64,000 nucleotides of DNA, from the NCBI GenBank assembly GCA_021650895.1, contig CP091278.1, positions 711,659 through 775,658 of the forward strand, in the 5' to 3' direction. Below, piece after piece: positions 11,435 through 64,000 of the stretch (its first letter is position 1; the number at the start of each line of letters is the position of its first letter). The stretch is from Candidatus Jettenia sp. (GTDB lineage: Bacteria; Planctomycetota; Brocadiia; Brocadiales; Brocadiaceae). The translations under genes were made by a program, and so were the position numbers. The notes beneath the pieces are model-generated. The model was not told where the DNA came from, did no database searches, and saw only the letters and a list, made by a program, of their open reading frames with translations.

Positions 11435-11822
11435 AATAGTAGCTGCGGAAACATGGATTTTAAAGTGAGAGATATTCGTAGTAACTATCATTTTTTGAAG
11501 GTAGATACAAAGTTTATCCCTGCAAAAACTCTGATCTATAACTGCTTTGAATTAAATCATCATCGCTCCTTTGCCTGCTCAATTATTTTCAATTGAACTG
11601 AAGTACTCAGTATGTTTACCCCTCATAGCACAAATTCAAATCCAAAAATACCTTCCAAAATTCATAATGACAGGTTTTTAATAATTTTATTAAATTTTGA
11701 CCTGCGGCTGTGATATAGTATCTTGATTTATTCCATAAAATTTATATTATATCGGAGAATTTATCATAATAAAGCGTCAATAGTATCTTATTCACATCCC
11801 TCTGAGTGAAGGAGTTTCGTAA
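11435..11822. other. intergenic stretch without a recognised gene
   Basis: 388 bases between murQ and the first DUF3568 lipoprotein. The longest reading frame is about 47 codons from 11453 and has no ribosome-binding site or recognisable motif. AT-rich sequence near 11690-11730 (TTGACC then TATCTT after 16 bases) could be a weak promoter for the lipoprotein gene, but the match is poor. Confidence 0.4.
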
Positions 11823-12212
11823 GTGAATCAAAAGAATTTATTGCTTATTATCTTACTTGGCATTATTGTATCATCCAGCAGCGGATGTGTTGCCCTCTTA
11901 GTTGGTGGAGGTGCTGGTGCCGGGACGATTGCATATTTAAAGGGTGATTTAAGATCTCTTGAAGAAGCATCGCTTGAGAGAGTTTGGGAAGCAGCACAAA
12001 AGGCCATACAAGAGTTGGAATTCGTCGTAACGAGCAAACAAAAAGACATCTTCTCTGCCAAATTTACTGCACATGGAGCACAAGATAAGAAGGTTACGGT
12101 TGATTTGAAAAAAATATCAGATAATTTAACGGAAATTAAAATTCGCGTAGGAATTTTTGGAGATGAATCGCTCTCCCGGTTACTGTTAGAAAGAGTAAGG
12201 AAACACCTTTGA
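11823..12212 (+). CDS. DUF3568-family lipoprotein, single domain
   Basis: A 129-residue predicted lipoprotein. A hydrophobic signal (NLLLIILLGIIVSSSSGC) ends in a lipobox with the acylated Cys at residue 22. A glycine-rich linker (GGGAGAGT) is followed by one DUF3568 domain: SLEEASLERVWEAAQKAIQELEF, the KQKDIFSAK strand and a final IKIRVGIFGDESLSRLLLERV. The start is GTG at 11823, supported by GAAGGAG 8-14 bases upstream. It shares clear sequence identity with both halves of the next gene, so it is the single-domain member of a local paralogous set. Likely anchored to a periplasm-facing membrane; the function of DUF3568 is unknown. Confidence 0.82.
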   Translation: MNQKNLLLIILLGIIVSSSSGCVALLVGGGAGAGTIAYLKGDLRSLEEASLERVWEAAQKAIQELEFVVTSKQKDIFSAKFTAHGAQDKKVTVDLKKISDNLTEIKIRVGIFGDESLSRLLLERVRKHL

Positions 12213-13628: not shown

Positions 13629-14083
13629 AATAAGGTCTCCTTTCTATAAATATTCGATGAGTCTTTATAAAATTTTATCCTTCTTTATTCTTAATCTGAG
13701 AAATAGAGAATAAGAGGATACATGTGTTGAAATTTATAAACTACACGATCTCAACACAAGGCAATCAATTTCCTTAAGTCGGTAAATGTCTGTTATCGCA
13801 GAAAAGGACAAAAGGTCATAAAGAACTTACGCAGCATTTGAGGTATGCTCAAATATGCAAACTTTTGAGATTTCGCGTGAGAATCTATACGCAAGAAATA
13901 ATCGTAATTTACTATACATTACATTAATTTGACATTAATTTGAAGAACATGTAAGGGAAGTTTTATCAAAAGATATACCATGAAACAGAAAAAACAATTT
14001 AATTATATTTTATGGCAAAAATAGTACCTATATGCTGTAAAAGAAAGGGTAAATTATGAAATAAAAAGAGCAAGTATGTAACC

Positions 14084-14130
14084 TGTCACACAAGTGTGTC
14101 GCCACAGATATGTGACATGTCACATATCTG
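14084..14130. promoter_or_regulatory. operator-like element: TGTCACA half-site plus 26-bp perfect palindrome
   Basis: A 26-base perfect palindrome at 14105-14130 has TGTGACATGTCACA at its centre (14111-14124). A TGTCACA half-site lies 27 bases upstream (14084-14090). The same arrangement, with exactly the same 27-base offset, occurs at 28206-28246. TGTGA-N4-TCACA has the layout of a CRP/FNR-superfamily operator with a 4-base spacer, but the cognate factor is not visible. It lies in the 660-base region between the divergent DUF1328 gene (13455-13628, minus) and the VOC-like gene (14289, plus); the rest of that region shows no gene. Confidence 0.55.
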
Positions 14131-14288
14131 GTTGAGTGAATATACCATCAAAAATTATTGCTTGTTGATGTTGCGCATTCCTATTATAATACTTGTGTAA
14201 CGATTCAAAAAGCCTTGCAAAATAGCTGCATTTCCCGAAATGTATCATGTGTAAATCTTCGCTGCAATACTATCAAATGGAGATTTCA

Positions 14289-15671
14289 ATGAAGCCAGAA
14301 AATTATAACCATGCCTGCAATTTCGATTGGGAACTCTATCCACAAGCTGAAAATTTCTTAATCCAGCATATTAATACATTCCTGGAAAACAACAGTTTTG
14401 CCCGTACACTTTCTTCTTCCATCGAACATGAAACCTCTACACTGTTTCTTGATTGGATTGATCATATGGTTTTACCTGAAAATATCGTTAGTGAAAAAGC
14501 CCTTGATGAATTTGGTTTTCAGAGGATGGATTCCGTAGAGGCTCCGCCCGATATGAAAGTCTTTATGCATCCAGGCGCTATTTTCTTTCCTGTTCTCCTT
14601 ACCAAAGGAAGATGTACGGAAGTTATACTGAAACCAGAGAGATTGGATCATTTTATTCAGATGCTTGGAAAAGGTTTTTCTATAGAAGGATGCATCTGTG
14701 GACATTACAGAAAAGCTGTTATTTCTCATCAGGATAATTCGATTCTTTCAGCTGTTGAAAGAAGAGGGTATAACGGCTTCCTTCTATCGGCAGATGCACA
14801 TGATGCGCAAGAATACAGACAAGCCTTGGAAATATTTTTCTGCCGACAACGATACTTTGAAGATCCTGGGGAAGGTATGAACGCAACTTTGCTCCTGATA
14901 AAAAACCTTTGCAAAAAGCTCTCTCTTGCAAGGGTAACCGATGCGTTTTTCAGGGCTGAACGAGTATACTGGGAAAGAAAAAACAGTGCGGGGCAAACTC
15001 AAAAAGCCCGCCAGGACAGGCTTGGGCTGGGATGGGGAAATCATGACCATCATACCTATCGTACATCACGTAACAATTTTACGAAGCTTATAAAGATCTT
15101 TGAAACCCTTGGATTCGTATGCCGTGAACAATTTTTTGCCGGTGAGGAAGCTGGTTGGGGCGCTCAAGTGCTTGAACACCCCCAATGCAACATCGTACTA
15201 TTTACTGATGTCGATCTCCTGAAAGAGGAAAAAAGCAAAGATTTCTCTCACTACGATTTGGAACAAACCACCCGATTTGGAACGGTCGGGCTCTGGGTAG
15301 AACTCCACGGAGAGAGCATGCTGCAGGCAGGTCTTCATCACCTTGCAGCGCGATTCAATTTTGAAAAGATACGTACAGATCTTAAAAGGCAAAATATCAA
15401 TACCATGAACCCATTTTCTTATTTTGAATTTTTGAAACAAGCGTTTACAGAGGCCGAAACCTGGAAGGTAGAGCCAAAACGCTTAAACAAACTTTTTGAG
15501 AAGAATACTATTACCAGGGCGCAATATGAGACATTTCTCAGGAATGGTACCATAGGCAGCCACTTAGAGAATTTGCAAAGAACTCAGGGATTTAAAGGAT
15601 TTAACCAGCGTTCCGTATCAGCTATAATCAAAGCTACAGATCCCAGGGAATATAAGTTTCAAGGGGCATAA
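14289..15671 (+). CDS. uncharacterised protein with two VOC-like metal-binding modules
   Basis: About 460 residues from the ATG at 14289, chosen because GGAGATTT lies 6 bases upstream; earlier in-frame ATGs at 14247 and 14277 lack such a site. I do not recognise a named family. Two segments look like vicinal-oxygen-chelate modules: residues about 52-125 (WIDHMVLPE ... ALDEFGF ... MHPGAIFFPVLL) and about 255-320 (GNHDHHTYRTS ... IFETLGFVC ... VLEHPQCNIVLFTDVD). Each has an early DH(M/H) and a late HP followed by a beta strand, as in two-module dioxygenases such as DUF1338/HglS. Metal binding by these His and Glu residues is inference. The C-terminal 100 residues are helical and charged. It stands alone between divergent and convergent neighbours. 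Confidence 0.55.
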   Translation: MKPENYNHACNFDWELYPQAENFLIQHINTFLENNSFARTLSSSIEHETSTLFLDWIDHMVLPENIVSEKALDEFGFQRMDSVEAPPDMKVFMHPGAIFFPVLLTKGRCTEVILKPERLDHFIQMLGKGFSIEGCICGHYRKAVISHQDNSILSAVERRGYNGFLLSADAHDAQEYRQALEIFFCRQRYFEDPGEGMNATLLLIKNLCKKLSLARVTDAFFRAERVYWERKNSAGQTQKARQDRLGLGWGNHDHHTYRTSRNNFTKLIKIFETLGFVCREQFFAGEEAGWGAQVLEHPQCNIVLFTDVDLLKEEKSKDFSHYDLEQTTRFGTVGLWVELHGESMLQAGLHHLAARFNFEKIRTDLKRQNINTMNPFSYFEFLKQAFTEAETWKVEPKRLNKLFEKNTITRAQYETFLRNGTIGSHLENLQRTQGFKGFNQRSVSAIIKATDPREYKFQGA

Positions 15672-15677
15672 TATAGT

Positions 15678-16655
15678 TTAAATTAAAATATCGCCATACC
15701 GCCATTTTTCATTGTTTCGGATTGATGTGTTAAATTTGGCACACAGCCGCTGCATTTTTAATAGTATTCTTTTTGCATCAATCTGCTTTGCTAACGTTGC
15801 CTGAAAATCACTGATAATCGTTGGGTAAAGCCGAAGCATGTAAATTCGGGAATCACGGACCTCAACGGTAAAAATAAAAGACTCATCATTACGCTCTATC
15901 TCATCAACTGCATAATCATCGATAAAATCACCAGCACTGTAGATGATCGGCTTGCCAAGATATATCTCTATACCTTGAAAAACGTGACAGGAATGACCAA
16001 AGACGATATCAGCACCAGCATCAATTAATGTATGGCCAAAAGAAATATGGTGAGGTTGAGGCCGATTTCTCCAATTTGGTCCCCAATGAGCCGAGATAAC
16101 TAAGACCTGTACCTCTTTTTTCGTGCTGCTGATAATCTCAAAGAGTCTCTTTGCCCGGTTATCTTCAGTATCGACAGGAACATAAAAAATCCCTGGCTTT
16201 TCTTCCGTTGCTTCCCAGTCTGACTCATTATCAGTAAAGGCAATAAATCCTATCTTCATTCCCCCTATCTCAAGAAATGCTGGCCGTGATGCCTCATTTC
16301 TATTGATGCCGGCGCCAGCATGACGAATACCTGCAGTATCTAAAATCTTCAACATCTCAAACATCGCTTCATATTCATAATCCAGGGTATGGTTATTAGC
16401 CAAAGAAACAATATGTATTCCGGCAGCTTTCAATACTTCAATATTTTTGGCATCTGACCTGAAATGGAAAACCTTGGGGGTTATAGTCCATGGATTACCC
16501 CGGTTGGAGATCACACATTCAAGATTGCAAATCCGTACATCAGCATCCCAAAAAATTGGTAACGTATTGCCCCATGGATGAGTCGGCAATTCTTCCTGTA
16601 ATATTTCGTTAACGAATCGGCCAAGCATTACATCACCGGTGAAAAGAAATTTCAT
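15678..16655 (-). CDS. CapA-family metallophosphoesterase-like protein
   Basis: A 325-residue protein of the CapA/PGA_cap family (calcineurin-like fold). The N-terminal FTGDVMLGRFV gives the first metal-binding Asp, NLECVISNRG lies near residue 45, VSLANNHTLDY near residue 83, VLVISAHWGPNW near 185 and GADIVFGHSCHVFQGIEIY near 215. These are the conserved metal-ligand blocks. CapA takes part in poly-gamma-glutamate export or capsule attachment in Firmicutes; elsewhere the family is a broad group of putative cell-wall phosphoesterases. No CapB or CapC is nearby, so the capsule role is not supported here. No signal peptide is evident. It converges on the VOC-like gene with a 6-base gap. Confidence 0.85.
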   Translation of the reverse strand: MKFLFTGDVMLGRFVNEILQEELPTHPWGNTLPIFWDADVRICNLECVISNRGNPWTITPKVFHFRSDAKNIEVLKAAGIHIVSLANNHTLDYEYEAMFEMLKILDTAGIRHAGAGINRNEASRPAFLEIGGMKIGFIAFTDNESDWEATEEKPGIFYVPVDTEDNRAKRLFEIISSTKKEVQVLVISAHWGPNWRNRPQPHHISFGHTLIDAGADIVFGHSCHVFQGIEIYLGKPIIYSAGDFIDDYAVDEIERNDESFIFTVEVRDSRIYMLRLYPTIISDFQATLAKQIDAKRILLKMQRLCAKFNTSIRNNEKWRYGDILI

Positions 16656-16697
16656 TTTTACTTTTTCTTAATGAATACATTGAACAATGCGGTAATT

Positions 16698-17363
16698 TTA
16701 TATTTCCAGAAGAAAATTTTTGATAAACCAATCCCGCGCTAATTGTGCAACTTTTTCCAACGCACCGGGTTCTTCAAAAAGATGAGTAGCGCCCGGGATG
16801 ATAACAAGTTCTTTGGGACACCTCAACCGTATATATGCTGCCTCATTCAGAGGGATAACCGGTTTATCATCACCCCCTGCAATAAGCAAGGTAGGCGCCT
16901 GAACACGTGACAGATGCTCCATGGCAAGATCAGGACGCCCTCCGCGGGAAACTACAGCCGCAATCTTATTCGGCTCACGCGCTGCTGCCTGAAGCGCTGC
17001 ACCAGCACCGGTACTTGCTCCAAAAAAACCTATCCTCATATCTTTCATCTCTGACTGCTCCTGTACCCAATGTGTATTGGCTAAAAGACGTCCAGCGAGA
17101 AGATCTATGTCAAAAACCTTTTGGCGGTCCATAGCCTCCGATTCCTCTAACAGGTCTACCAGTAATGTAGCAATACCCGCATCCTGGAGAACCCGCGCAA
17201 CGAAATTATTTCGGGGACTGAAACGACCACTCCCGCTGCCATGAGCAAATATAACTACTCCTTTGGTCCGGAGAGGTAAACCCAAAATACCCTGGAGGCG
17301 TACAGTATCTGCAAGGATCTCAACCTCCTTTTCGTGCTTTTCTATGGTTATTGATTGATTCAT
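16698..17363 (-). CDS. dienelactone hydrolase-family alpha/beta hydrolase
   Basis: A 221-residue alpha/beta hydrolase. The nucleophile elbow is GFFGASTGAGAAL (Ser near residue 117), the acid is in LLIAGGDDKPV near 166, and the catalytic His is in IPGATHLFEEPGAL near 195. An oxyanion-loop motif, FAHGSGSGRFSPRN, lies near residue 40. This subgroup is commonly encoded next to, or fused with, the phosphoribosyltransferase found here 166 bases upstream on the same strand, which supports an operon. The physiological substrate is unknown. Confidence 0.85.
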   Translation of the reverse strand: MNQSITIEKHEKEVEILADTVRLQGILGLPLRTKGVVIFAHGSGSGRFSPRNNFVARVLQDAGIATLLVDLLEESEAMDRQKVFDIDLLAGRLLANTHWVQEQSEMKDMRIGFFGASTGAGAALQAAAREPNKIAAVVSRGGRPDLAMEHLSRVQAPTLLIAGGDDKPVIPLNEAAYIRLRCPKELVIIPGATHLFEEPGALEKVAQLARDWFIKNFLLEI

Positions 17364-17529
17364 ATTCCATCCACCTTACCCTTTCTGAGCTTACAACTAC
17401 TCAAAACACTTGCGTAGAACAAAGGCATGATTCCCATACATAATACTGACATTGTATGCGCATATGGGTAGAAATGCCGTTTCATACCTTATCTTGAGTG
17501 TCTACTCAAAATTACCTTCCTTAGCCCTT

Positions 17530-18213
17530 TCAGGCATTCACCGGTTTCTGAGGCTTGAACTTAGCCCAGTTACGATGAAGAATTTCAATAGCTTCCTCAT
17601 CACTTACCTGATTAAAGTCGAGGTACCACGCACCTACGGCAATAAATGAATCCGGAATGCTGAGACAAATTATTTCATCTGCAAAATCATACAGTATATC
17701 CAAACTCCCCTGAGCAGCAACAGGCACTGCAGCGATTAACGTTGCAGGATTACGCCGGCGGAGACCTTCTAATGCCGCACGAAATGTATAACCCGTTGCA
17801 ATACCATCGTCAACGACAATAATTTTCCTTCCGGTAATTTCCGGAGACGGCCGACCAGCCCGATACAACTGCAGCCGCCGTTCAATCTCTTCCCGCTGAT
17901 AGGCTATCTCGCTTCTTAGATATTCTTGTGAGGCGCCTACAGCACGAACCAACTCCTCATTAATAATACTGATATTGTCACCGTCCACTACAGCGCCAAT
18001 ACCCAATTCAGGCTGATAGGGAGCCCGGATTTTACGGACAATAACTACATCAAGCGGAGCGGACAGTGCTTCGGCGATCTCATCAGCAACTACAATTCCC
18101 CCGCGTGGAATACCCAATACCATGAACGGTTGATTGCGGTATCCACGTTTTGTAAGTTCATCAGCAAGCCGGCTCCCTGCATCACGCCGATCTTTAAAAA
18201 TGATATTTTTCAT
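17530..18213 (-). CDS. phosphoribosyltransferase-domain protein
   Basis: A 227-residue type I PRTase fold. The PRPP-binding loop is KIIVVDDGIATGYTFRAAL near residue 130, and an N-terminal hood region contains VLGIPRGGIVVADEIA near 32 and DVVIVRKIRAPYQPELGIGAV near 55. RKI.AP..PELA/GIGAV is typical of the stand-alone family that pairs with dienelactone-hydrolase-like enzymes. A strong AAAGGAGG site lies 5-9 bases before the ATG. The nucleobase substrate is not predictable. Probably cotranscribed with the downstream hydrolase. Confidence 0.88.
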   Translation of the reverse strand: MKNIIFKDRRDAGSRLADELTKRGYRNQPFMVLGIPRGGIVVADEIAEALSAPLDVVIVRKIRAPYQPELGIGAVVDGDNISIINEELVRAVGASQEYLRSEIAYQREEIERRLQLYRAGRPSPEITGRKIIVVDDGIATGYTFRAALEGLRRRNPATLIAAVPVAAQGSLDILYDFADEIICLSIPDSFIAVGAWYLDFNQVSDEEAIEILHRNWAKFKPQKPVNA

Positions 18214-51011: not shown

Positions 51012-51422
51012 CTACGCTTTTTCCACCTTTATTAATTCTCCGTTCAGGTATTTTTTCATGAAATCGTTCTCGTTGCCAGCGGTATACCCTGTCTTTGCCG
51101 GATCCCACAATCCCTTACCTCCAATACCACCATCCTCCGCCTTAGTGATCTTTACCAAGGTCTCCTTTGGAGTAGTATTAATGCCATGATTATCGGCTTC
51201 ATAGCCAAAAACAAACTTCATACTCGTTTTTGACTTATGGAATAAGCTATCCAATTGGTGCATGGGCATAGACCAATTCCTGGTAATACTCTGTTGTGAT
51301 CCATAACGGAAGCTTGACTGATACCCGGTGCCTGCCGATAGTGCCCTTCCATCCGGTCTTGTCTCATGGGCCTTCACCGACCGCTCTGTTGAAATGCACG
51401 CAGAGTGCTTCATCATGGTCAC
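51012..51422 (-). pseudogene. nxrA: nitrite oxidoreductase alpha subunit, C-terminal part after frameshift
   Basis: 136 residues that complete the NxrA chain: VTMMKHSACISTERSVKAHETRPDGR, SFRYGSQQSITRNWSMPMHQLDSLFHKSK and a C-terminal KKYLNGELIKVEKA. The GTG (51420-51422) overlaps the stop of the upstream part as GTGA. There is no ribosome-binding site for an independent start. Adding one G to the GGG run at 51421-51424 gives PYGVTMMKHS in one frame, with a total of about 1,148 residues. Confidence 0.85.
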
Positions 51423-54400
51423 CCATACGGATATGCCGGATTGTACTTACACCGTAACATCAGACGCGCTACCTTATAGAACGGGTCGCTTGGCTTCCAT
51501 CCCTCATACGGCCTGTCCGCAGGGTTGGCATCTACATACACATAATCACCATCATTGATACCTAAATCCTTCGCAGCTTCCGGATTCATATGGATTTGAT
51601 GTTCTCCCACCCCTGGCATTCTCTTGTCCATCCTGTAGGGGTCACCAAAGTTGTTATTCCAGATAAAGTTCCAGTCCGTTACTGCCCACTGGGAGTGTAC
51701 CGTATGGCGGGATTTCGGTGTTACACAATAGAACTTATATCCCTTCTCCCACAAGAAGTTCTTCGTTTTCTTTGTCTCAGCCCATGACTTCTTGATGTTC
51801 CTTACCGTTCTCTCATCCCAATGTTCTGCATTCTCCGGTATTCCATAATCATCCGGACGGATATACGGATTGGTGCTGACGATGACATTCGGAAGATACT
51901 GGGTTGCCTCCGGTCCTTCACGATGTACGATAAAGTTCTCTCCGTACTCAATAATCTCCGATTCATCATTGTACCCCTGTAACCTTCCTGTCGGTGTATA
52001 GAAGGGAAGGCTCTCATGTACCTGTTCCCAGAATGGATGTCTCGGATAGGTACGGTAGAGCAACAAGGCAACTCCTGGCTCGCCATATTTCCCATTAATG
52101 ATGTCAACAAAACTGTACCCCTTTGTCGTCGTACTGCCATCCAATAATCTCTGGATATAGACCTCTGGTCTTCCCTCAAGGGCAAACTTCCAAACATCAT
52201 GGAATCTCATATCTCTGAGGAGTTCTCCGAGCTTGGCTCCCATACCCGCAAGGATCATCACATCATCCTTAGAGTCGTTCACCGGTTTTATGCCACCCTT
52301 CCATATCTGAATGAAGGGATTGGAGCATGAGGTGGTAATCTCATGGGTCTCAAACTCTGCCCAGGAGTTCGCCGGAAATGCAAAATCGGCATATTCAATA
52401 GAACCGGTCATCTCTATATCGTTCGACATGATTTGTTCGATATTGGGATTGACATTCTTCAGCATCTGGTACACATGCTTGGCATTGTTTACCAGGTTTA
52501 CGTTCGTAAACCACATGATCTTCGTTGGTGTCGGCATGTGGGTTTTACCCGTAAAGCATTTCCGTCCATACTTTGGGGTATTCACAATTAACGGCCTGTC
52601 ATTGTGATTCCAGTACGCCACTTCTTCATCATAGGCACGTCCCTTTACCTTGAGTTCCGTTGCAGGTGCATCGGGATCAAGGTTCGGGTTAAATACATCC
52701 TCTGCTACCCATCCATAGAATCCGGGACCACTCCACTTTGATGCCTGGAAATTGCCTGCCTTATAGTTACCCGACCAGGTATGAGAGCCTGAACCAGGAC
52801 AACCGATATTCCCTGTTAACATCAGAGGTAAATAAGTTGATCTGTTAAACAATGTTGCATGGAACCAGTGGTTAATACCCTCACCATAATGGATCGCTAC
52901 CGGCTTAATGGTTGCTATATCATGTGCCAGCCTTACGATTAACTCTTTTGGTGAATTCGTCATTTCAACGACACTATCAATATCGTAATCTTTCAGATGT
53001 ATTTTATACATCTCAAAGAGCGGCATGACCTCAATCTCTTTGCCATCTACCGTTTTCACCTTGAATATTCCATCGAGAGCCGGATCAATACCCTTTGCAA
53101 CAAGCTTATCACCAACATCATCACGGGTAATCGGTTTCGGGCTATTTGTCTTTGCATCCCATACCACAAAGTCTCCGATAATCTCCCTCTGGTCGTCATG
53201 TAAGCCGTGAATCTTATAGCTTGCCCCATGTGACATATCCTCTAGTTTATAATCCGGGAAGATATCTTTCGCCTGCAGTCTCTTCAAGGTATCTGTTCGA
53301 ACGAGTAAGGGGAAATCGGTAAACTTCTTCACATAATCTGCATCATACAGTTTCTCATCCATGAGGATCTTGGTTATCCCCAGGAACAATGCCGTATCGG
53401 TATTACACTTGATCGGTATCCAGTAATCTGCCTTTTGAGCAGATGGGCTATATTCGGGGGTAATAACAACCAGCTTCCCACCTCTCTCGAAAACCTGTGT
53501 TAACCAGTGTGCCTCAGGCATCTTATTCTCAATAAGGTTCTTTCCGGTCTGGATTACCAACTTTGAGAATCGTACATCGTTCATATCTACATCCGATGTC
53601 TGCAATCCATGGACAAACGGATGTCCGGGGGCCTGATCACCATGCCAGGTATAGTTTGACCAGTTTCTTCCGCCCAATGCCTTGTCAGGACCAACACCTC
53701 TGTTGTGACTATCGACCAGGGCAAGGGAATTGTTAAACCGGTACATCCCGTATTTACCAATAACACCCAAGAGACCCATACCACCGCGTCCCTTAAAGGT
53801 TCGTGTGCCGGCACCCTTCATCGCATCAACCATCTCTTTAGGATAGCCTTGATCCAGGAGTTTCCGTGCGCCTTCTTCTCCACTGTACTTCTTGGTAATG
53901 TGGATAATACCCTTTGCAGCATAGGTCCAGGCATCATCCCAGGAGGCCTTTAAGAGTTCATCCTGACCTCTGGCATCAAACATATACTTTGATTTATTTT
54001 CCGGTGTTAGTTCCGGGAATCCATCATCAGCCCATTGCTTCCATCCCTTTCGGATCAGAGGATACCGTAATCGATAGGGGCCGTATACCCTGCGATGGAA
54101 GGTATATCCTTTCAGGCACATCCTGGGGTTCCAGTTCCTTGTAGCCTTATTTCCATACAGGTCTGCGTAGTTCTGATGATCATAATTCTGTTCAACCCTC
54201 ATGAGTACTTCGTTTCTCACAAACGCCCTCACTCTACAGGCATGGGTATCATTGGGAGAGCAACAATAAGTGAAGGTACGATCGTACCGGTACTGTTCTC
54301 GATATACACTTTCCCATGCACGGTCTGGATAAGCATCCAGGGGGTTTCCAACTTCTACAGCGGGCTTTAATAACCTGAACGCCATTGCCTTATTGGCAAG

Positions 54401-54460
54401 GGTAAAGGTCGCACCCGTTGCGCCTGCCACCTGTAGGAAAGTCCTCCTCGTAAGTTTCAT
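51419..54460 (-). CDS. nxrA: nitrite oxidoreductase alpha subunit (NxrA), main part
   Basis: 1,013 residues of the molybdenum-bis-MGD catalytic subunit of the NarG/NXR group in anammox bacteria; it oxidises nitrite to nitrate, supplying electrons in the anammoxosome. A twin-arginine signal, KLTRRTFLQ, starts the protein. Fe-S (FS0) ligands are in FTYCCSPNDTHAC (Cys66, Cys67, Cys75) and RMCLKG (Cys115). The likely Mo ligand Asp275 is in NYTWHGDQ. Bis-MGD segments include KLVIQTGKN and a C-terminal dinucleotide-binding part. TGA at 51419-51421 cuts off the final 136 residues, which follow in the next frame. No NxrB or NxrC gene is adjacent. The promoter is at 54696-54746, with a leader of about 230 bases that includes a palindromic repeat. 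Confidence 0.93.
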   Translation of the reverse strand: MKLTRRTFLQVAGATGATFTLANKAMAFRLLKPAVEVGNPLDAYPDRAWESVYREQYRYDRTFTYCCSPNDTHACRVRAFVRNEVLMRVEQNYDHQNYADLYGNKATRNWNPRMCLKGYTFHRRVYGPYRLRYPLIRKGWKQWADDGFPELTPENKSKYMFDARGQDELLKASWDDAWTYAAKGIIHITKKYSGEEGARKLLDQGYPKEMVDAMKGAGTRTFKGRGGMGLLGVIGKYGMYRFNNSLALVDSHNRGVGPDKALGGRNWSNYTWHGDQAPGHPFVHGLQTSDVDMNDVRFSKLVIQTGKNLIENKMPEAHWLTQVFERGGKLVVITPEYSPSAQKADYWIPIKCNTDTALFLGITKILMDEKLYDADYVKKFTDFPLLVRTDTLKRLQAKDIFPDYKLEDMSHGASYKIHGLHDDQREIIGDFVVWDAKTNSPKPITRDDVGDKLVAKGIDPALDGIFKVKTVDGKEIEVMPLFEMYKIHLKDYDIDSVVEMTNSPKELIVRLAHDIATIKPVAIHYGEGINHWFHATLFNRSTYLPLMLTGNIGCPGSGSHTWSGNYKAGNFQASKWSGPGFYGWVAEDVFNPNLDPDAPATELKVKGRAYDEEVAYWNHNDRPLIVNTPKYGRKCFTGKTHMPTPTKIMWFTNVNLVNNAKHVYQMLKNVNPNIEQIMSNDIEMTGSIEYADFAFPANSWAEFETHEITTSCSNPFIQIWKGGIKPVNDSKDDVMILAGMGAKLGELLRDMRFHDVWKFALEGRPEVYIQRLLDGSTTTKGYSFVDIINGKYGEPGVALLLYRTYPRHPFWEQVHESLPFYTPTGRLQGYNDESEIIEYGENFIVHREGPEATQYLPNVIVSTNPYIRPDDYGIPENAEHWDERTVRNIKKSWAETKKTKNFLWEKGYKFYCVTPKSRHTVHSQWAVTDWNFIWNNNFGDPYRMDKRMPGVGEHQIHMNPEAAKDLGINDGDYVYVDANPADRPYEGWKPSDPFYKVARLMLRCKYNPAYPYG

Positions 54461-56191: not shown

Positions 56192-56917
56192 ATGGAATTT
56201 ACGATGAATACATTAGGAAAAGCAAAGGAACCTTTTATATTTTCTACACAATTCTCTCTCACCGAGCTTACAGGGCTAAAAGCAACAAATTTGCAACAGT
56301 TACTAGACCTCATCAAGACCGTTCCAGGATCAGTTATTTATCATCATACCCATCATTTTCTCCAGGAACATCAATATTTATTACCTGAACCGCCAAATGA
56401 TTTTTCCTACTGGGTTACTGAATTTTTAGGTGAAGCAAGGCTTGGTGAATATTTGCTGAGCATTGATACCATTCAGTACGCAACAATTCGTGAACTCCGT
56501 GATAAAATAGCTCGTACCATTGAAGATTACGTTAAAGACTACCCAACATCATTGAATAAATTTACAACCACAGGAGAAGAGTTCCGTTTTTTAAAATCTG
56601 TTAGCTTTGTTTTACAAACACCACATAAAGCTTCAGACCTTAAGGAATTCAAAACTGCATTGCAAAAAGTAACACCTCGTTCTCTCTATTTTCACATGTT
56701 TGAGGCAAGACTTCGTATAAGACAAGGCATTAATGATTTTTCTAAGTGGCTAGAAGATTGTTTATCAGAAAATAAACTGGCAAATAAAATAGCTGCCCTG
56801 GACCCCTATACCTATACTTTAGAAAATTTACGATTTACCATTATAAAGTTAGTCGAAAAAAGAATTACCGAATCTTTAAAGGAACATCCGGTTATTCCAG
56901 AAGCTCTTCCAAGATAA
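56192..56917 (+). CDS. DUF5752-family protein
   Basis: 241 residues. Two imperfect halves: FSLTELTGLKATNLQQLLDLIKTVPGSVIYHHTHHFLQEH...FSYWVTEFLGEARLGEYLLSID and LQTPHKASDLKEFKTALQKVTPRSLYFHMFEARLRIRQGINDFSKWLEDCL...LANKIAALDPYTYTLENLR. The pair HxHHF / HMFEAR and (Y/K)W suits DUF5752, a family often encoded beside trehalose synthase-type glycosyltransferases. GGAAGGAAG is upstream. The gene runs 9 bases ahead of the glycosyltransferase, so an operon is likely. The function is not known. Confidence 0.75.
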   Translation: MEFTMNTLGKAKEPFIFSTQFSLTELTGLKATNLQQLLDLIKTVPGSVIYHHTHHFLQEHQYLLPEPPNDFSYWVTEFLGEARLGEYLLSIDTIQYATIRELRDKIARTIEDYVKDYPTSLNKFTTTGEEFRFLKSVSFVLQTPHKASDLKEFKTALQKVTPRSLYFHMFEARLRIRQGINDFSKWLEDCLSENKLANKIAALDPYTYTLENLRFTIIKLVEKRITESLKEHPVIPEALPR

Positions 56918-56926
56918 AAAAGAATT

Positions 56927-58150
56927 ATGGCAAAAATTTCAGAATATAGTTCTGTAGTCGGTTCTAGCACCATTGAAGAGTTACAAATATTAGCAGGCAG
57001 ACTTCACGGAAAAGTCGTTCAAAATATCAATTCTACTGCAACAGGAGGTGGTGTTGCAGAACTTCTCAGTCGAATTGTGCCTTTGTTACAGGAATTAGGG
57101 GTGAATACCAGGTGGGATGTAATTAAAGGCGGGGAGAGTTTCTTCAATGTTACAAAGAAATTCCACAATGCCTTGCACGGAAGGCCTGAAGAGATTAGTC
57201 CACAAATGTTTGAAGCATTTATGGAGACAAGTCAGCAAAACATTGACGAACTTAAGGTATATGGAGATATCATGATTATCCATGATCCACAACCTATTGC
57301 GCTTATTAAAAAAAAATTGTCTATGCCCGGTAGCAAGTGGGCCTGGCGATGTCATATCGACATCTCCTCCCCGGATACTCACGTATGGAATTTTCTAAAA
57401 CCATTTATTCATCAGTATGATAGCGCGATTTTTTCTTCCCCAAATTTCTCACCAGCCTTACCTATCCGGCAATTTCTTATCCTGCCGTCTATCGATCCTT
57501 TAAGCGATAAGAATAAAGATCTGCCTCAAGAAACAATCGATGCGGTACTGGAAAAATATCAAATCAAGAAAGATAAACCTATTATTACCCAGATCTCACG
57601 GTTTGACTATCTGAAAGACCCTATTGGCGTTATTGAAGCCTACCGTTTAGTAAAGAAGCGTATCGACTGTCAACTCATTCTCGCCGGAGGAACAGCTACA
57701 GATGATCCGGAATCAAGCAAGGTTTTTGCAGACACAAAAGAAATAGCAGGAAGCGATACAGATATACATATTCTCCCTGTTCCATCCGGAAGTGACTTAG
57801 AAATCAATGCGCTACAAAGGGCGTCCACCGTCATTGTACAAAAATCACTGCGTGAAGGGTTTGGACTTACCGTAACCGAGGCATTATGGAAGGCAAAACC
57901 GGTTGTCGCTTCCAGCACCGGTGGTATCCCATTACAAATCAAACATAAATATAATGGACTTTTATGCCATAGTATTTTTGGCGCCGCTCTTTCTATAAAA
58001 CAGTTATTACATAACCCAGAATATGCTAAAAGGCTCGGTGAAAATGGACGTGAACACGTTAAACAAAACTTTATCCTTACTCGTCATCTCAAGGATTGCC
58101 TGCTTTTATTCTTATGCATGTATCATCCTGACGATATCATTCATTTATAA
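56927..58150 (+). CDS. GT4 glycosyltransferase, trehalose synthase (TreT)-like
   Basis: 407 residues of GT-B fold. N-terminal NINSTATGGGVAELLSRIVPLLQELGVNTRWDVI is typical of TreT-like proteins, followed by DIMIIHDPQPIALI, WRCHIDISSPD and the C-terminal nucleotide-sugar site with SLREGFGLTVTEALWKAKPVVASSTGGIPLQI (E-x7-E motif). TreT joins NDP-glucose and glucose to trehalose in a reversible reaction. Neighbouring ABC transporter genes suggest linkage of synthesis and uptake. The exact sugar is not certain. Confidence 0.85.
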   Translation: MAKISEYSSVVGSSTIEELQILAGRLHGKVVQNINSTATGGGVAELLSRIVPLLQELGVNTRWDVIKGGESFFNVTKKFHNALHGRPEEISPQMFEAFMETSQQNIDELKVYGDIMIIHDPQPIALIKKKLSMPGSKWAWRCHIDISSPDTHVWNFLKPFIHQYDSAIFSSPNFSPALPIRQFLILPSIDPLSDKNKDLPQETIDAVLEKYQIKKDKPIITQISRFDYLKDPIGVIEAYRLVKKRIDCQLILAGGTATDDPESSKVFADTKEIAGSDTDIHILPVPSGSDLEINALQRASTVIVQKSLREGFGLTVTEALWKAKPVVASSTGGIPLQIKHKYNGLLCHSIFGAALSIKQLLHNPEYAKRLGENGREHVKQNFILTRHLKDCLLLFLCMYHPDDIIHL

Positions 58151-58231: not shown

Positions 58232-59053
58232 ATGAATTATTATAAAAAAGCTTTATTTTACCTGCTCGTAATTATTATTACCATTTGGAGTATATTTCCT
58301 TTCTTTTGGATTTTATTAACCTCCATCAAGCCTCCCTTTCAGATTATGCAATTACCACCAGTATTTCCCACTACCATTACTCTTGCTGCATATAAGAATG
58401 TCCTTCTGAAAAGTTATTTTCCTCATTATTTATTCAATAGTTTCATGGTATCGTTATCAACGGTATTCATTACAATACCAATCGCACTTCTTGCGGCTTA
58501 CAGTATATCACGCTTCTCATTCCGAGGGAAAACGTCCATTCTCTTTATGATTATTATTTTATTTACCCTCCCTTCCATAAGCCTTGTAGCTGCCCTTTAT
58601 AAACTATTTTATACCTTAGGCTGGATTAATCTTCCTATTTCTCTTATCGTTACGTACAGTGCCAATAATTTCCCTTTAGCCTTTTTTCTTCTGGTAAAAT
58701 ATCTTGATAAGATCCCAACAGATATGGACTGTGCTGCCCTTATTGATGGATGCACTTATTTTCAAGCCTTTCGGTACATTATTACTCCTTTATCATTACC
58801 GGGCGTTATTTCTGCAGCAGTTCTTATTTTTATTTTTTGCTGGAATGAATTTCTTTTTGCGCTTACTTTTACCCTTGATGAATCATCAAGATTAGCATCA
58901 GTAGGAATTGCATTATTTCAGGGTACCTTTGAAATTCCCTGGGGTGATATTGCAGCAGCATCAGTTATAGTAACACTTCCTCTTCTTCTGTTTTTGCTGT
59001 TTTTTCAAAAATATATTATACAGGGGCTAACAGCAGGAGCGCTCAAAGGATGA
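58232..59053 (+). CDS. carbohydrate ABC transporter permease, MalG/ThuG type
   Basis: 273 residues with six membrane helices (about 12-33, 68-90, 103-125, 135-155, 185-205, 240-262). The cytoplasmic EAA loop is DCAALIDGCTYFQAFRYIITPLSLPG near 180. It pairs with the ATPase encoded next (4-base overlap, ATGA). The second permease of such importers (MalF type) is not found in the window. The preceding 80 bases contain no clear promoter. Confidence 0.93.
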   Translation: MNYYKKALFYLLVIIITIWSIFPFFWILLTSIKPPFQIMQLPPVFPTTITLAAYKNVLLKSYFPHYLFNSFMVSLSTVFITIPIALLAAYSISRFSFRGKTSILFMIIILFTLPSISLVAALYKLFYTLGWINLPISLIVTYSANNFPLAFFLLVKYLDKIPTDMDCAALIDGCTYFQAFRYIITPLSLPGVISAAVLIFIFCWNEFLFALTFTLDESSRLASVGIALFQGTFEIPWGDIAAASVIVTLPLLLFLLFFQKYIIQGLTAGALKG

Positions 59054-60105
59054 AAATAAAATTACAAGATGTTATAAAACTCTACAACAACCATTACGCT
59101 GCCGTGAACAAGCTGAATTTAGATATATCCAGTGGTGAATTTCTTGTTGTGCTCGGTCCTAGCGGAAGCGGAAAATCCACAACCTTGAATATGCTTGCTG
59201 GTTTAGAAATACCTACCTCCGGACATATATTCTTTAATGAACGTATCGTGAATAATGTCCCGCCAAGAAAAAGAGATATCGCTTTGGTCTTCCAGAATTA
59301 TGCCCTATACCCCCACATGAAGAGTTATGATAATATTGCCTTCCCTCTGAGAATGCGAAAAGAAAAGGATTTACACCAGCGGGTTATGAAAACCGCTGAA
59401 ATGCTGGGATTAAGTGCCTTACTGCATAAGTACCCAAAAGAACTCTCTGGTGGAGAAAGGCAACGGATAGCATTGGCACGGGCACTTGTGAGAAATCCAC
59501 AAGTCTTTCTCATGGATGAGCCACTCAGTAATTTAGACGCACGGCTTCGGCTCTCAGCGCGAGGAGAGTTAAAGAAATTACAAAAACAGCGTAATGTCAC
59601 TACAATATATGTCACTCATGACCAAACAGAAGCGCTTACTCTGGGAGATCGCATCGTAATCATGGATAAAGGCAACTTACAACAGATAGGCGCACCGGAT
59701 GAAATATATCAGAAACCGCACAATACCTTTGTTGCCAGTTTCATTGGGACTCCTCCCATGAACATGGTACAGGTGCAGAAATATACCACCCATTCTTTTA
59801 TCCTTGAAAATACTACGATTGAATTTCCCACCCCGTTACCTGATCAAACAAATCTTATTCTCGGCATAAGGCCTGAAAATCTGACGATAGTACCAGCAGA
59901 TGCACAATTCATTATGCCATGCACCGTGGAACATATAGAATATCTCGGTAATGAATCAATAGGACATATTAAAATCAATCCCACGACAATATGGTATGCA
60001 AAGAATATGAGAGAAGGAATAAAGATAGGTGATAAAGCTGGTTTAAAATTCTCACCAGATGATGCCCACTGGTTTGATTCTGTAACCAGAAAAAGGATAG
60101 CATAA
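59050..60105 (+). CDS. sugar ABC transporter ATP-binding protein, UgpC/MsmX type
   Basis: 351 residues. Walker A GPSGSGKST near 36, Q-loop VFQNYALYPHM near 80, signature LSGGERQRIALARAL near 135, Walker B VFLMDEPLSNLDA near 154, switch His in VTHDQTEALTLGDR, and a C-terminal OB-type regulatory domain (about 240-351, LGIRPENL). These are the marks of the MsmX/MalK family that energises sugar importers. The start overlaps the permease stop. Confidence 0.95.
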   Translation: MKIKLQDVIKLYNNHYAAVNKLNLDISSGEFLVVLGPSGSGKSTTLNMLAGLEIPTSGHIFFNERIVNNVPPRKRDIALVFQNYALYPHMKSYDNIAFPLRMRKEKDLHQRVMKTAEMLGLSALLHKYPKELSGGERQRIALARALVRNPQVFLMDEPLSNLDARLRLSARGELKKLQKQRNVTTIYVTHDQTEALTLGDRIVIMDKGNLQQIGAPDEIYQKPHNTFVASFIGTPPMNMVQVQKYTTHSFILENTTIEFPTPLPDQTNLILGIRPENLTIVPADAQFIMPCTVEHIEYLGNESIGHIKINPTTIWYAKNMREGIKIGDKAGLKFSPDDAHWFDSVTRKRIA

Positions 60106-60241: not shown

Positions 60242-63200
60242 ATGAACTGGTATCAGCTTCCTGTAAAAGAAATAGTGAAAAAACTTGGAACATCCGATGA
60301 GGGATTGCCTGATAAGGAAGCCAAAGAACGCCTTCAGCAATATGGTCCAAATAGACTTGCAGAAGAGAAAAAGATAAGCAAAATAAAGATACTCCTTCAC
60401 CAGTTTACCAGTCCCCTCATTTATATCCTTTTCGTAGCAGCATTCGTTACCTTTTTTCTGAAAGAATTTATTGATACCAGTGTAATTATGGTAGCCGTAT
60501 TCCTTAATGCAATTATTGGTTATATCCAGGAATTTAAGGCAGAACAGAGTGTCAGGGCACTCAAAAAGATGCTGATACCGAAGGCAAAGGTTTTACGGGA
60601 TGAACAAGAAAAAGAAATAAACAGCGAAGAGCTTGTACCAGGTGACATCGTTCTTCTTGCATCAGGCGGTAAGGTACCGGCAGATCTAAGACTTTTTAAG
60701 ACTCTTGAGTTAAAAATTGATGAATCCATGCTCACTGGTGAATCAATCCCTGGAGAAAAAACTACAACACCAATACAAAAGAATAATCTGACGCCCGGAG
60801 ACCAGAAGAATATGGCCTTCACAGGAACAATTGTTGTAAGTGGAAGAGGGAGAGGCATTGTTACCGAAACGGGAAATAAAACGGTTCTTGGTCAAATTGC
60901 AAAGGACGTTAGAGAAACGGTTAAAATAAAAACACCTCTTCAGAATAAACTGGAGCGGTTTGCAAAAATTATAGGAGTTGTTATTGTTGGACTTTCTGGC
61001 ATTCTCTTTGGTATAGGCTTAATGCACGGATCAAACATTTCTGAAATGTTTATGGTTGCTGTTGCCACCGCCGTATCAGCAATACCTGAAGGTCTTCCTG
61101 TTGCAGTAACCATTACCATGGCAATCGGTGTATCAAGAATGGCAAGGAGAAATGCTATTATAAGAAAATTACCCGCAGTGGAAACCCTGGGAAGTACTAC
61201 CGTCATATGCTCTGACAAGACAGGAACACTAACGAAGAATGAAATGACCGTGAAACTCATTTATAATGAAAATCATATCTATGAAGTAACCGGAACAGGA
61301 TATGATCCAAAGGGTGAGATTCTTCGTGATGAGATGCCTGTTCCACACAAAGATAAGGAAGATATCCTGCTTGTTTTACGAATAGGATTACTTTGTAATG
61401 AATCTCATATTTATCTTGAAGATAGCCAATACAAAATTGAGGGAGATCCTACAGAAGGAGCGCTTATTGTATCAGCAATAAAAGGAGATCTTAACCCTGA
61501 AGAAGAGAGGGGAAATTATCCACAAATTGCGATTATACCTTTTGAATCGGAACGCGGTTATATGGCTACCCTTAATAAGCACCGAAACAAAAAATGTATT
61601 TTTGTAAAGGGCGCCCCGGAAAAGATAGTAGACATGTGTACCAAATTTAAGACAAATAGCAGTTCTCCCAAAAAAGAGATCCTTCAGGCTGCAAATGCTT
61701 TTGCAAAAAAAGGTTTACGAGTGCTTGCATTTGCTTATAAAGAAACGCCGAACAACAAGGAAGAACTTACTCACCAGGATATAGAATCAGGATTAACCTT
61801 TGCAGGTCTTCAGGCTATGATAGATCCACCAAGACAAGAAGTAATAGAAGCAATAGAGGGGTGTAAACAAGCAGGCATCAGAACCATAATGATAACCGGT
61901 GACCATGCAATCACTGCAGTATCTATCGCAAAAGAGCTTGGATTGGGTGGACAGGATGAGAAGGTTTGCACAGGAAAAGAACTTGAAACGATGAGTGATG
62001 AAGAACTTTTTCATACGGTAAAAAACGTATCGGTATTTGCAAGGGTATCACCTCAACATAAGTTAAGAATAACGAATCAATTATTAAAACATGGTGAGGT
62101 AGTCGCAATGACAGGAGACGGAGTTAATGATGCACCTGCCCTCAAGGCTGCTCATATTGGTATTGCCATGGGCAGGACAGGAACTGATGTTGCGAAAGAG
62201 GCCTCCGATGCTGTCCTTACCGATGATAATTTTGCAAGCATTTTTGCAGCGGTTGAAGAGGGAAGGGTAGTGTATGATAATATCAAGAAGGTCACCCTCT
62301 TTCTGATATCATGCGGTTTTGGAGAACTGATTGCCATTATCACCACCGTTGCAATGGGTTTCCCTATACCCTATATAGCGGTACAGATACTCTGGTTGAA
62401 CCTCGTAACAAACGGGCTTCAAGATATCGCTCTTGCCTTTGAACCAGGAGAAAAAGGAGTCTTACAGAAACCACCAAGGCATCCGAAAGAACGTATTCTT
62501 ACCAGTATTATGATTCAAAGGACTGTTCTCATGGGACTTGTTATAGCAGCAGGAACGGTCACTCTCTACCTATACCATCTCAATAAAGGAGCATCATTAG
62601 AACAGGCTCGTACCGTAGCCCTTACAACCATGGTCATTTTCCAATCCTACCAGGCATTTAACTGCCGTTCTGAATCACAATCCATTTTCAGGAAGAATCC
62701 TCTGAGTAACCCATTTTTATTCTTCAGCATGATTGCTGCCCTCTTTGCCCATCTTTCAGTGTTGTATGTACCGGCTCTTCAATGGGTTTTTAGAACAGTT
62801 CCTCTTACCAGGGAAGAATGGATCGATATCGGAGTGATAACCGTAGCAATTGTTATTGCCGTTGAGATCGATAAATTGATAAGAAGAAAAAGGAAAACAA
62901 GAGCAACGATTACAGGATTTAAAACGGGAAAAATACTTGCATCAGTCAAAATACTTTTGATATCTGTTTGTATTTTCCTTGGATTATGGACTGCCTATAC
63001 ATTCTTCAGGCCCAAAAGAGAAGATGAAGTTGTTTTTAGTATTGGGTGTGGCGCCGAAGAAATCGGAATAATAAGGAGACTCATAGATACATTTGAAAAG
63101 GAAAATCCTGCGATACATGTTAAATTAAACATCCTTCCTGCGCCTACGGATCAGCAGCACCATTACTATCTTACTACCTTTGGGGTAAAGTCTGAAGATA

Positions 63201-64000
63201 TTGATGTGATGAGAATTGATACTATCTGGATTGCAGAATTTGCGTCAGCAAGATGGCTAGAGCCATTAGAAACATATATCAATCCTGGATATAAAGCATC
63301 ATTTATTCCCATAATTGATGCGATAAACATATACCAGGATCGTTTATACGCCATTCCCTGGAATGCCGATATTGGACTTTTCTATTATCGAAACGATTTA
63401 TTAAAAAAATACCAGGCATCTCCGCCGCAAACGTGGGAAGAGCTTATTGAAACAGGCACAAAAATTTCCTCCATGGAACCTGTATATGGATACCTCTGGC
63501 AAGGAAAACAGTATGAAGGATTGGTCTGTAATTTTATTGAATTCATTGGCAGCAACAATGGAGAAATACTTGATGCACAGGGAAGAGTAGTTGTTAATTC
63601 GATACAAAATCACACAGCTCTCAATCTCATGCATGATTTACTATGGAAGTATCAGATATCACCGCCAAATACCTACAGCGAACTTATGGAAGAGCCCACT
63701 CGTCATCTATTTCAACAGGGTAGAGGTCTTTTTTTAAGAAATTGGACTTATGTATGGAATCTTTTTCAGGCAGACCAGTTTATGAGGAATAAAGTAGGAG
63801 TATCTCACTTGCCTAAATTCTCCGGTGGACGCCCAGCTCCTGTATACGGAGGATGGCATCTCGCTATAAATGCTAACTCAAAAAGGAAGAAGCAGGCATG
63901 GCAACTCGTTAAATTCTTAAGCTCACACAGGGTGCAAAGAGAACTATCCAAGAGACTATCCTGGGCGCCGACACGTACCTCACTATATAAAGACCCGAGA
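60242..64000 (+). CDS. fusion of a Ca2+-ATPase-like P-type ATPase with an ABC sugar-binding protein (3' end outside window)
   Basis: One uninterrupted frame of 1,253 codons from the ATG at 60242 to the window edge. Residues about 1-890 are a P2-type ATPase: TGES near 163, M4 motif AIPEGLPVAV, SDKTGTLTKNEM with phosphorylated Asp325, KGAPE, ITGDHA, GDGVNDAPA, and M5-M6 FGELIAIITTVAMGFP ... LWLNLVTNGLQDIAL (SERCA Asn768 and Asp800 equivalents are Gly and Asn, so ion choice is uncertain). M10 ends at IDKLIRRKRK. Then an eleventh helix (about 900-920, KILLISVCIFLGLWTAYTFF) and a solute-binding domain from about 925 (VVFSIGCGAEEIGIIRRLIDTFEKENPAIHV...PWNADIGLFYYRNDLL...GGWHLAINANSKRKKQAWQLVKFLS). 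The last domain matches the MalE/ThuE class expected for the neighbouring importer. AAAGG is upstream of the ATG. Confidence 0.9.
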   Translation, partial: MNWYQLPVKEIVKKLGTSDEGLPDKEAKERLQQYGPNRLAEEKKISKIKILLHQFTSPLIYILFVAAFVTFFLKEFIDTSVIMVAVFLNAIIGYIQEFKAEQSVRALKKMLIPKAKVLRDEQEKEINSEELVPGDIVLLASGGKVPADLRLFKTLELKIDESMLTGESIPGEKTTTPIQKNNLTPGDQKNMAFTGTIVVSGRGRGIVTETGNKTVLGQIAKDVRETVKIKTPLQNKLERFAKIIGVVIVGLSGILFGIGLMHGSNISEMFMVAVATAVSAIPEGLPVAVTITMAIGVSRMARRNAIIRKLPAVETLGSTTVICSDKTGTLTKNEMTVKLIYNENHIYEVTGTGYDPKGEILRDEMPVPHKDKEDILLVLRIGLLCNESHIYLEDSQYKIEGDPTEGALIVSAIKGDLNPEEERGNYPQIAIIPFESERGYMATLNKHRNKKCIFVKGAPEKIVDMCTKFKTNSSSPKKEILQAANAFAKKGLRVLAFAYKETPNNKEELTHQDIESGLTFAGLQAMIDPPRQEVIEAIEGCKQAGIRTIMITGDHAITAVSIAKELGLGGQDEKVCTGKELETMSDEELFHTVKNVSVFARVSPQHKLRITNQLLKHGEVVAMTGDGVNDAPALKAAHIGIAMGRTGTDVAKEASDAVLTDDNFASIFAAVEEGRVVYDNIKKVTLFLISCGFGELIAIITTVAMGFPIPYIAVQILWLNLVTNGLQDIALAFEPGEKGVLQKPPRHPKERILTSIMIQRTVLMGLVIAAGTVTLYLYHLNKGASLEQARTVALTTMVIFQSYQAFNCRSESQSIFRKNPLSNPFLFFSMIAALFAHLSVLYVPALQWVFRTVPLTREEWIDIGVITVAIVIAVEIDKLIRRKRKTRATITGFKTGKILASVKILLISVCIFLGLWTAYTFFRPKREDEVVFSIGCGAEEIGIIRRLIDTFEKENPAIHVKLNILPAPTDQQHHYYLTTFGVKSEDIDVMRIDTIWIAEFASARWLEPLETYINPGYKASFIPIIDAINIYQDRLYAIPWNADIGLFYYRNDLLKKYQASPPQTWEELIETGTKISSMEPVYGYLWQGKQYEGLVCNFIEFIGSNNGEILDAQGRVVVNSIQNHTALNLMHDLLWKYQISPPNTYSELMEEPTRHLFQQGRGLFLRNWTYVWNLFQADQFMRNKVGVSHLPKFSGGRPAPVYGGWHLAINANSKRKKQAWQLVKFLSSHRVQRELSKRLSWAPTRTSLYKDPR

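What the first reader, a model, noticed from the sequence alone, without database searches (positions are those of the whole stretch)
60242..64000. P-type ATPase fused in frame to an ABC sugar-binding protein
A complete P2-type ATPase (10 helices, all catalytic motifs) reads without a stop into a solute-binding domain. The junction is natural: the ATPase ends at its normal C-terminal basic tail (IDKLIRRKRK), and about 10 residues later an extra helix would carry the chain from the cytoplasm to the outside, where a solute-binding protein belongs. The topology therefore works: M10 ends inside, helix 11 goes out, and the binding domain is external. The gene stands in a sugar importer/trehalose-synthase operon whose stand-alone binding protein is absent, so this domain is likely the importer's receptor. 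I know of no described P-type ATPase with a tethered ABC receptor. Physical coupling of ion pumping and sugar uptake would be new; it could also be a passive fusion of adjacent operon genes.
Basis: partly seen in the sequence, partly recalled or inferred. Interest (0 to 1): 0.88.

Follow-up and report, generated by a model that had tools for sequence, protein, structure and literature searches.

The report
Ion pump fused to sugar receptor
In some anammox bacteria the gene for an ion-pumping ATPase runs on without a break into the gene for the sugar-catching receptor of a trehalose importer, giving one large membrane protein; the join is real, occurs in four species and probably arose twice, but nobody has shown that the two machines drive each other.

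Summary
Window 60242-64000 is the start of one 1322-aa ORF, whose stop lies 210 bases past the window in a closed 3.82 Mb genome. Residues 1-884 are a complete P2-type ATPase; 899-922 an extra helix; from about 941 a solute-binding protein (SBP) closest to the Thermococcus litoralis trehalose/maltose-binding protein (1EU8, E 1e-97). The gene sits between MalK and MalF in a TreT/OtsAB trehalose operon with no other such receptor. Fusions of 1321-1343 aa occur in three Jettenia species (one carries two) and one Loosdrechtia-genus species. A second Loosdrechtia has the two genes adjacent but separate; other Brocadiaceae have stand-alone SBPs that already carry the anchor helix. Fused ATPases fall in two old subfamilies (single clade rejected, p 2e-85): at least two joinings, or one joining plus ATPase exchange. 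Both domains are under purifying selection; the linker is not. Unfused ATPase genes also lie in trehalose/glycogen clusters. Best reading: the receptor's own anchor was appended to a co-operonic pump, giving a tethered importer receptor for osmolyte handling. Energetic coupling is untested; the pumped ion is unknown (an M6 calcium-ligand Asp is Asn).

The parts
56192..56917 (+). DUF5752 protein, first gene of the trehalose operon
   Evidence: PF19027, E 3e-68; same place in the TreT operons of other phyla
56927..58150 (+). TreT-type trehalose glycosyltransferring synthase
   Evidence: PF21269 TreT_GT1 E 2e-53; NF041139 362.6 bits, under its cut-off of 775
58232..59053 (+). MalG-type permease of the ABC importer
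   Evidence: PF00528 and MalG/GlcU-like NCBIfam hits
59050..60105 (+). MalK/UgpC-type ATPase of the ABC importer, overlapping MalG by 4 bases
   Evidence: PF00005, TOBE_2; UgpC/GlcV/MalK-like
60242..62893 (+). P2-type cation ATPase half of the fusion (residues 1-884)
62894..62935 (+). basic linker (residues 885-898), not under detectable selection
   Evidence: alignment; dN/dS near 1 over residues 884-906; low-confidence coil in the model
62936..63007 (+). extra helix TM11 (residues 899-922), the SBP family's own signal anchor
63062..64000 (+). TMBP-like solute-binding domain (residue 941 on; continues to window-equivalent 64210)

Best explanation
A single bifunctional membrane protein. Its N-terminal 884 residues are a P2-type cation pump. 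Its C-terminal part is the receptor of the neighbouring MalF-MalG-MalK trehalose/maltose importer, held outside the membrane by the receptor's own ancestral signal-anchor helix, which now follows the pump's cytoplasmic tail. It arose when an ATPase gene just upstream of the SBP gene in the same operon became joined to it in frame; this happened at least twice, or once followed by exchange of the ATPase part. Most likely effect: the receptor is made in fixed ratio with the pump and kept beside it, both serving osmolyte and ion balance. Shown: the open frame, its recurrence, the domain identities, the operon, the selection pattern. Inferred: topology, substrate, receptor function, osmotic role, and that the tether acts without energetic coupling.
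For: Open frame and domains; recurrence in 4 species and 5 genes; both halves under purifying selection, omega 0.05-0.27 in the ATPase and 0.05-0.17 in the SBP; stand-alone relatives of the SBP carry the same anchor helix and the same 20-base overlap with MalF; unfused but adjacent pair in G005, 36 bases apart in the same frame; TMBP-like sequence and fold; no other gene of this SBP type in the genome; unfused ATPase orthologues in trehalose/glycogen clusters; no start codon conserved at the old SBP start.
Against: No expression, localisation or transport data. The cation is unknown. The second fused copy in G002 follows a Na+/H+ exchanger gene and has no MalF directly after it, which a pure importer-receptor role does not explain. 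The membrane part of the structure model is of low confidence.
Confidence: 0.6

Rival explanations
1. Functional coupling: sugar binding to the external domain regulates the ion pump, or the pump's movements gate delivery of sugar to MalFG, for example a trehalose-sensing cation pump in osmotic response.
For: ATPases of two different subfamilies are joined to the same receptor; ATPase and trehalose genes keep company even when unfused; copy b in G002 pairs the fusion with a Na+/H+ exchanger rather than with MalF, as a sugar-regulated pump might.
Against: Linker near-neutral and variable in length; stand-alone SBPs and stand-alone ATPases are the rule in sister genera; no contacts can be read from the model.
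Confidence: 0.14
2. Neutral fusion: adjacent co-directional genes lost the stop codon between them; the signal anchor made this harmless, loss of the SBP start made it irreversible, and it brings no benefit.
For: Genes adjacent and in the same frame in G005; linker omega near 1; topology permits it without change.
Against: At least two joinings, or one joining kept through an ATPase exchange, and persistence across two genera at saturated dS.
Confidence: 0.2
3. Two products after all: the SBP is released by proteolysis after TM11 or is also made from an internal start.
For: G012 has an in-frame ATG preceded by AAGGAAA at the start of TM11; Jettenia copies a have an in-frame TTG at residue 879/880.
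Against: No small-x-small signal-peptidase motif after TM11 in fused or stand-alone sequences (read by eye); G002b has no in-frame start before mid-helix and no candidate start is shared by all copies.
Confidence: 0.1

Closest known systems
Trehalose/maltose-binding protein (TMBP, 1EU8) and the TreT-linked importer operon of Thermococcus litoralis
   Same: SBP sequence and fold (41% identity in the Foldseek alignment, TM 0.89 to the target) and operon with TreT, MalF, MalG and MalK types of genes (operon of Thermococcus from general knowledge)
   Different: There the SBP is its own gene product; here it is the C-terminal part of a P-type ATPase
P2-type Ca2+-ATPases SPCA1/PMR1 and Listeria LMCA1
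   Same: Full-length similarity (E about 1e-179), all catalytic motifs, M4 PEGLP
   Different: Under the curated cut-offs of the PMR1 and SERCA families; M6 Asp replaced by Asn; carries TM11 plus SBP
ABC importers with the SBP fused to the permease (for example GlnPQ and OpuA types, general knowledge; NCBIfam NF043073 is such a permease/substrate-binding protein)
   Same: Receptor tethered covalently to a membrane transport protein
   Different: There the partner is the importer's own permease; here it is a transporter of another class

Membership tests
P2-type (IIA) ATPase | phosphorylation, dephosphorylation and hinge motifs DKTGT, TGES, TGDGVND | tested here: met
P2-type (IIA) ATPase | N-terminal, actuator, nucleotide-binding and C-terminal transmembrane domains | tested here: met
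   PF00690, PF00122, PF13246, PF00689
PMR1/SPCA or SERCA calcium pump | score above the curated equivalog cut-off | tested here: not met
   TIGR01522 754.4 against 798.3; TIGR01116 693.6 against 703.4
PMR1/SPCA or SERCA calcium pump | M6 Asp calcium ligand | tested here: not met
   NLVTN against NIIMD of SPCA1; role of the Asp from general knowledge
Carbohydrate SBP, TMBP type | SBP_bac_1 domain above cut-off and TMBP as nearest solved relative | tested here: met
   114 bits against 26; 1EU8 E 1e-97; fold
Carbohydrate SBP, TMBP type | binds trehalose or maltose | not testable with these tools
   needs binding assay; several aligned aromatic and charged positions are kept in the 1EU8 alignment, but site residues were not tested one by one
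MalFGK-type ABC importer | two permeases, a MalK-type ATPase and one SBP in one operon | tested here: met
   the SBP is the fused domain

The most novel reading that the evidence does not exclude
A sugar-sensing ion pump: trehalose or maltose bound outside controls a P-type ATPase, or the pump and the ABC importer work as one complex, linking ion transport to osmolyte uptake in anammox bacteria.
Probability: 0.14. Interest if true: 0.88.

Novelty: new variant of a known kind. Interest (0 to 1): 0.62.

Why it matters
It joins two unrelated classes of ATP-driven transporter in one chain, was made twice (or remade by ATPase exchange) in one small clade, and has natural unfused controls in sister species. 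That makes a direct test of coupling between transporters possible, and it points to a link between trehalose handling and ion pumping in anammox bacteria, which are used in wastewater treatment.

Tried and rejected
Sequencing or assembly error: rejected by recurrence in four assemblies. Chance open frame: rejected by omega well under 1 in both domains. One fusion inherited unchanged: rejected for the ATPase half (AU p 2e-85). The SBP half first looked like one clade (97/92), but a probable gene-conversion tract between the two Jettenia copies (dS about 0.25 in one 65-codon window against about 1 to 2.4 elsewhere) causes part of that; over the C-terminal part G002b joins G012 (93/93) and the A lineage is unresolved. 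Fusions elsewhere: none outside the family among 392 phylum genomes, and only Jettenia among the 80 named loci kept from the GTDB scan; two long frames (L115, L141) carried no recognised domain before the SBP. Literature: no paper on such a fusion found in the held library; the J. ecosi genome paper mentions a maltose/maltodextrin ABC transporter and no P-type ATPase (PMC6828613).

Full report
Observation. The frame that starts at 60242 is open to the end of the window. The window lies in a closed genome of 3,822,769 bases. Past the window the frame stops after 1322 codons, and a MalF-type permease gene begins 20 bases before the end of that frame; OtsA and OtsB follow. Pfam places the ATPase domains at 3-880 and SBP_bac_1 at 942-1232 of one chain.

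The ATPase half. All catalytic motifs are present. The nearest solved relatives are SPCA1 and Listeria LMCA1. It falls just short of the curated cut-offs for PMR1-type and SERCA-type calcium pumps. In M6 it has NLVTN where SPCA1 has NIIMD, so a calcium-ligand aspartate is asparagine; this holds in every relative of the group whose M6 could be read, fused or not. In M5 the two subfamilies differ: A reads CGFGEL, with a glutamate where SPCA1 has alanine, and B reads TGIAAI or similar. The cation is therefore not assigned.

The receptor half. By sequence (E 1e-97) and by fold (TM 0.89 to the target) it is closest to the trehalose/maltose-binding protein of Thermococcus litoralis. With TreT, DUF5752, MalG, MalK, MalF, OtsA and OtsB around it, this is a TreT-linked trehalose importer operon; similar gene sets with a free SBP are seen in Nitrospirota, Deltaproteobacteria and others. 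The genome has no second gene of this SBP type at E 1e-10; the other hits of the two SBP Pfam families are in other, shorter genes elsewhere.

The junction. Stand-alone SBPs of the same bacterial family start with a short basic stretch and a hydrophobic helix (for example KKIIILSVYVMVGLWIAYTFFR) with no small-x-small cleavage motif that I could see, so a signal anchor is likely. In the fusions this helix follows directly on the ATPase's basic C-terminal tail. Since the tail of a P2 ATPase is cytoplasmic (general knowledge), the helix can insert as it always did, and the SBP ends outside. The AlphaFold model of residues 690-1322 shows M10 to about residue 888, a low-confidence coil, a helix at 899-922 and a very confident SBP. 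The membrane part is of low confidence and is not used as evidence of contacts.

Distribution. Fused frames are in G000, G001, G002 (twice) and G012, which shares the genus code of G005. In G012 a separate ATPase gene precedes the fused one. In G005 the ATPase ends, 36 bases with further stops follow in the same frame, and the SBP starts. The other family members in which this SBP was found have it free. Nothing comparable was found elsewhere among 392 genomes of the phylum.

History. The fused ATPases belong to two subfamilies: A (G000, G001, G002a, with unfused G005) and B (G002b, G012, with Brocadia relatives). Holding them together as one clade is rejected. Between the two copies in G002, dS is 2.2 in the ATPase and 1.05 in the SBP, but the SBP value is lowered by a probable conversion tract. 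Over the C-terminal part of the SBP, G002b goes with G012, matching its ATPase. So either the A and B fusions arose separately, or one fusion later had its ATPase exchanged. Selection is strong on both domains and not detectable on the linker, a stretch of only 23 codons. No start codon is conserved where the SBP used to begin.

Company of the genes without fusion. In several Brocadia-type genomes the unfused ATPase lies about 17-24 kb from the importer SBP on the same contig; in G022, the one scanned in detail, it follows GlgE, an amylase/maltokinase-type protein, GH57, GH77 and GH13 genes. In G019 it follows DUF5752, TreT and a histidine-phosphatase gene. In G002 the second fused copy follows a Na+/H+ exchanger gene with a 4-base overlap. 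A shared role in osmolyte and ion balance is inference from this neighbourhood.

Mechanism and verdict. Shown: one chain is encoded, kept and selected. Inferred: an external receptor tethered to a pump and serving MalFGK. Not shown: any effect of sugar on the pump or of the pump on uptake. The near-neutral linker and the unchanged anchor favour a passive tether; the recurrence, the gene company and the MalF-free copy b leave a regulated pump open. The architecture is a new combination of known parts; I found no description of it, within a library that lacks most subscription journals.

Noticed in passing
L173:4874-8377 (-), same genome C1:382873-386376, outside the window: A P-type ATPase of 1167 aa whose C-terminal membrane half (M5-M10) is present twice in tandem, 60% identical; matching open frames of 1177-1185 aa occur in G001, G002 and G005.
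   Followed up: partly
L031:7169-11143 and 13645-17610: Two diverged fused copies 2.5 kb apart in G002, with a probable gene-conversion tract in the N-terminal part of the SBP.
   Followed up: yes
L166:277-16582: Large GlgE/amylase-maltokinase/GH57/GH77/GH13 cluster ending in the unfused ATPase orthologue.
   Followed up: partly
L046:7057-8334 (-) and 11498-12060 (-): In G030 the SBP and MalK genes are interrupted by stops or frame breaks, so the importer may be decaying there or misassembled.
   Followed up: no
L094: A contig labelled Burkholderiales bacterium FR_12 holds a Brocadiaceae-like SBP (59%) and MalF (68%); it may be a mislabelled anammox genome.
   Followed up: no
51419-54460 (-): Large molybdopterin-oxidoreductase-like protein with a twin-arginine start (MKLTRRTFLQ), possibly a nitrite oxidoreductase subunit; read from the sequence only.
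   Followed up: no
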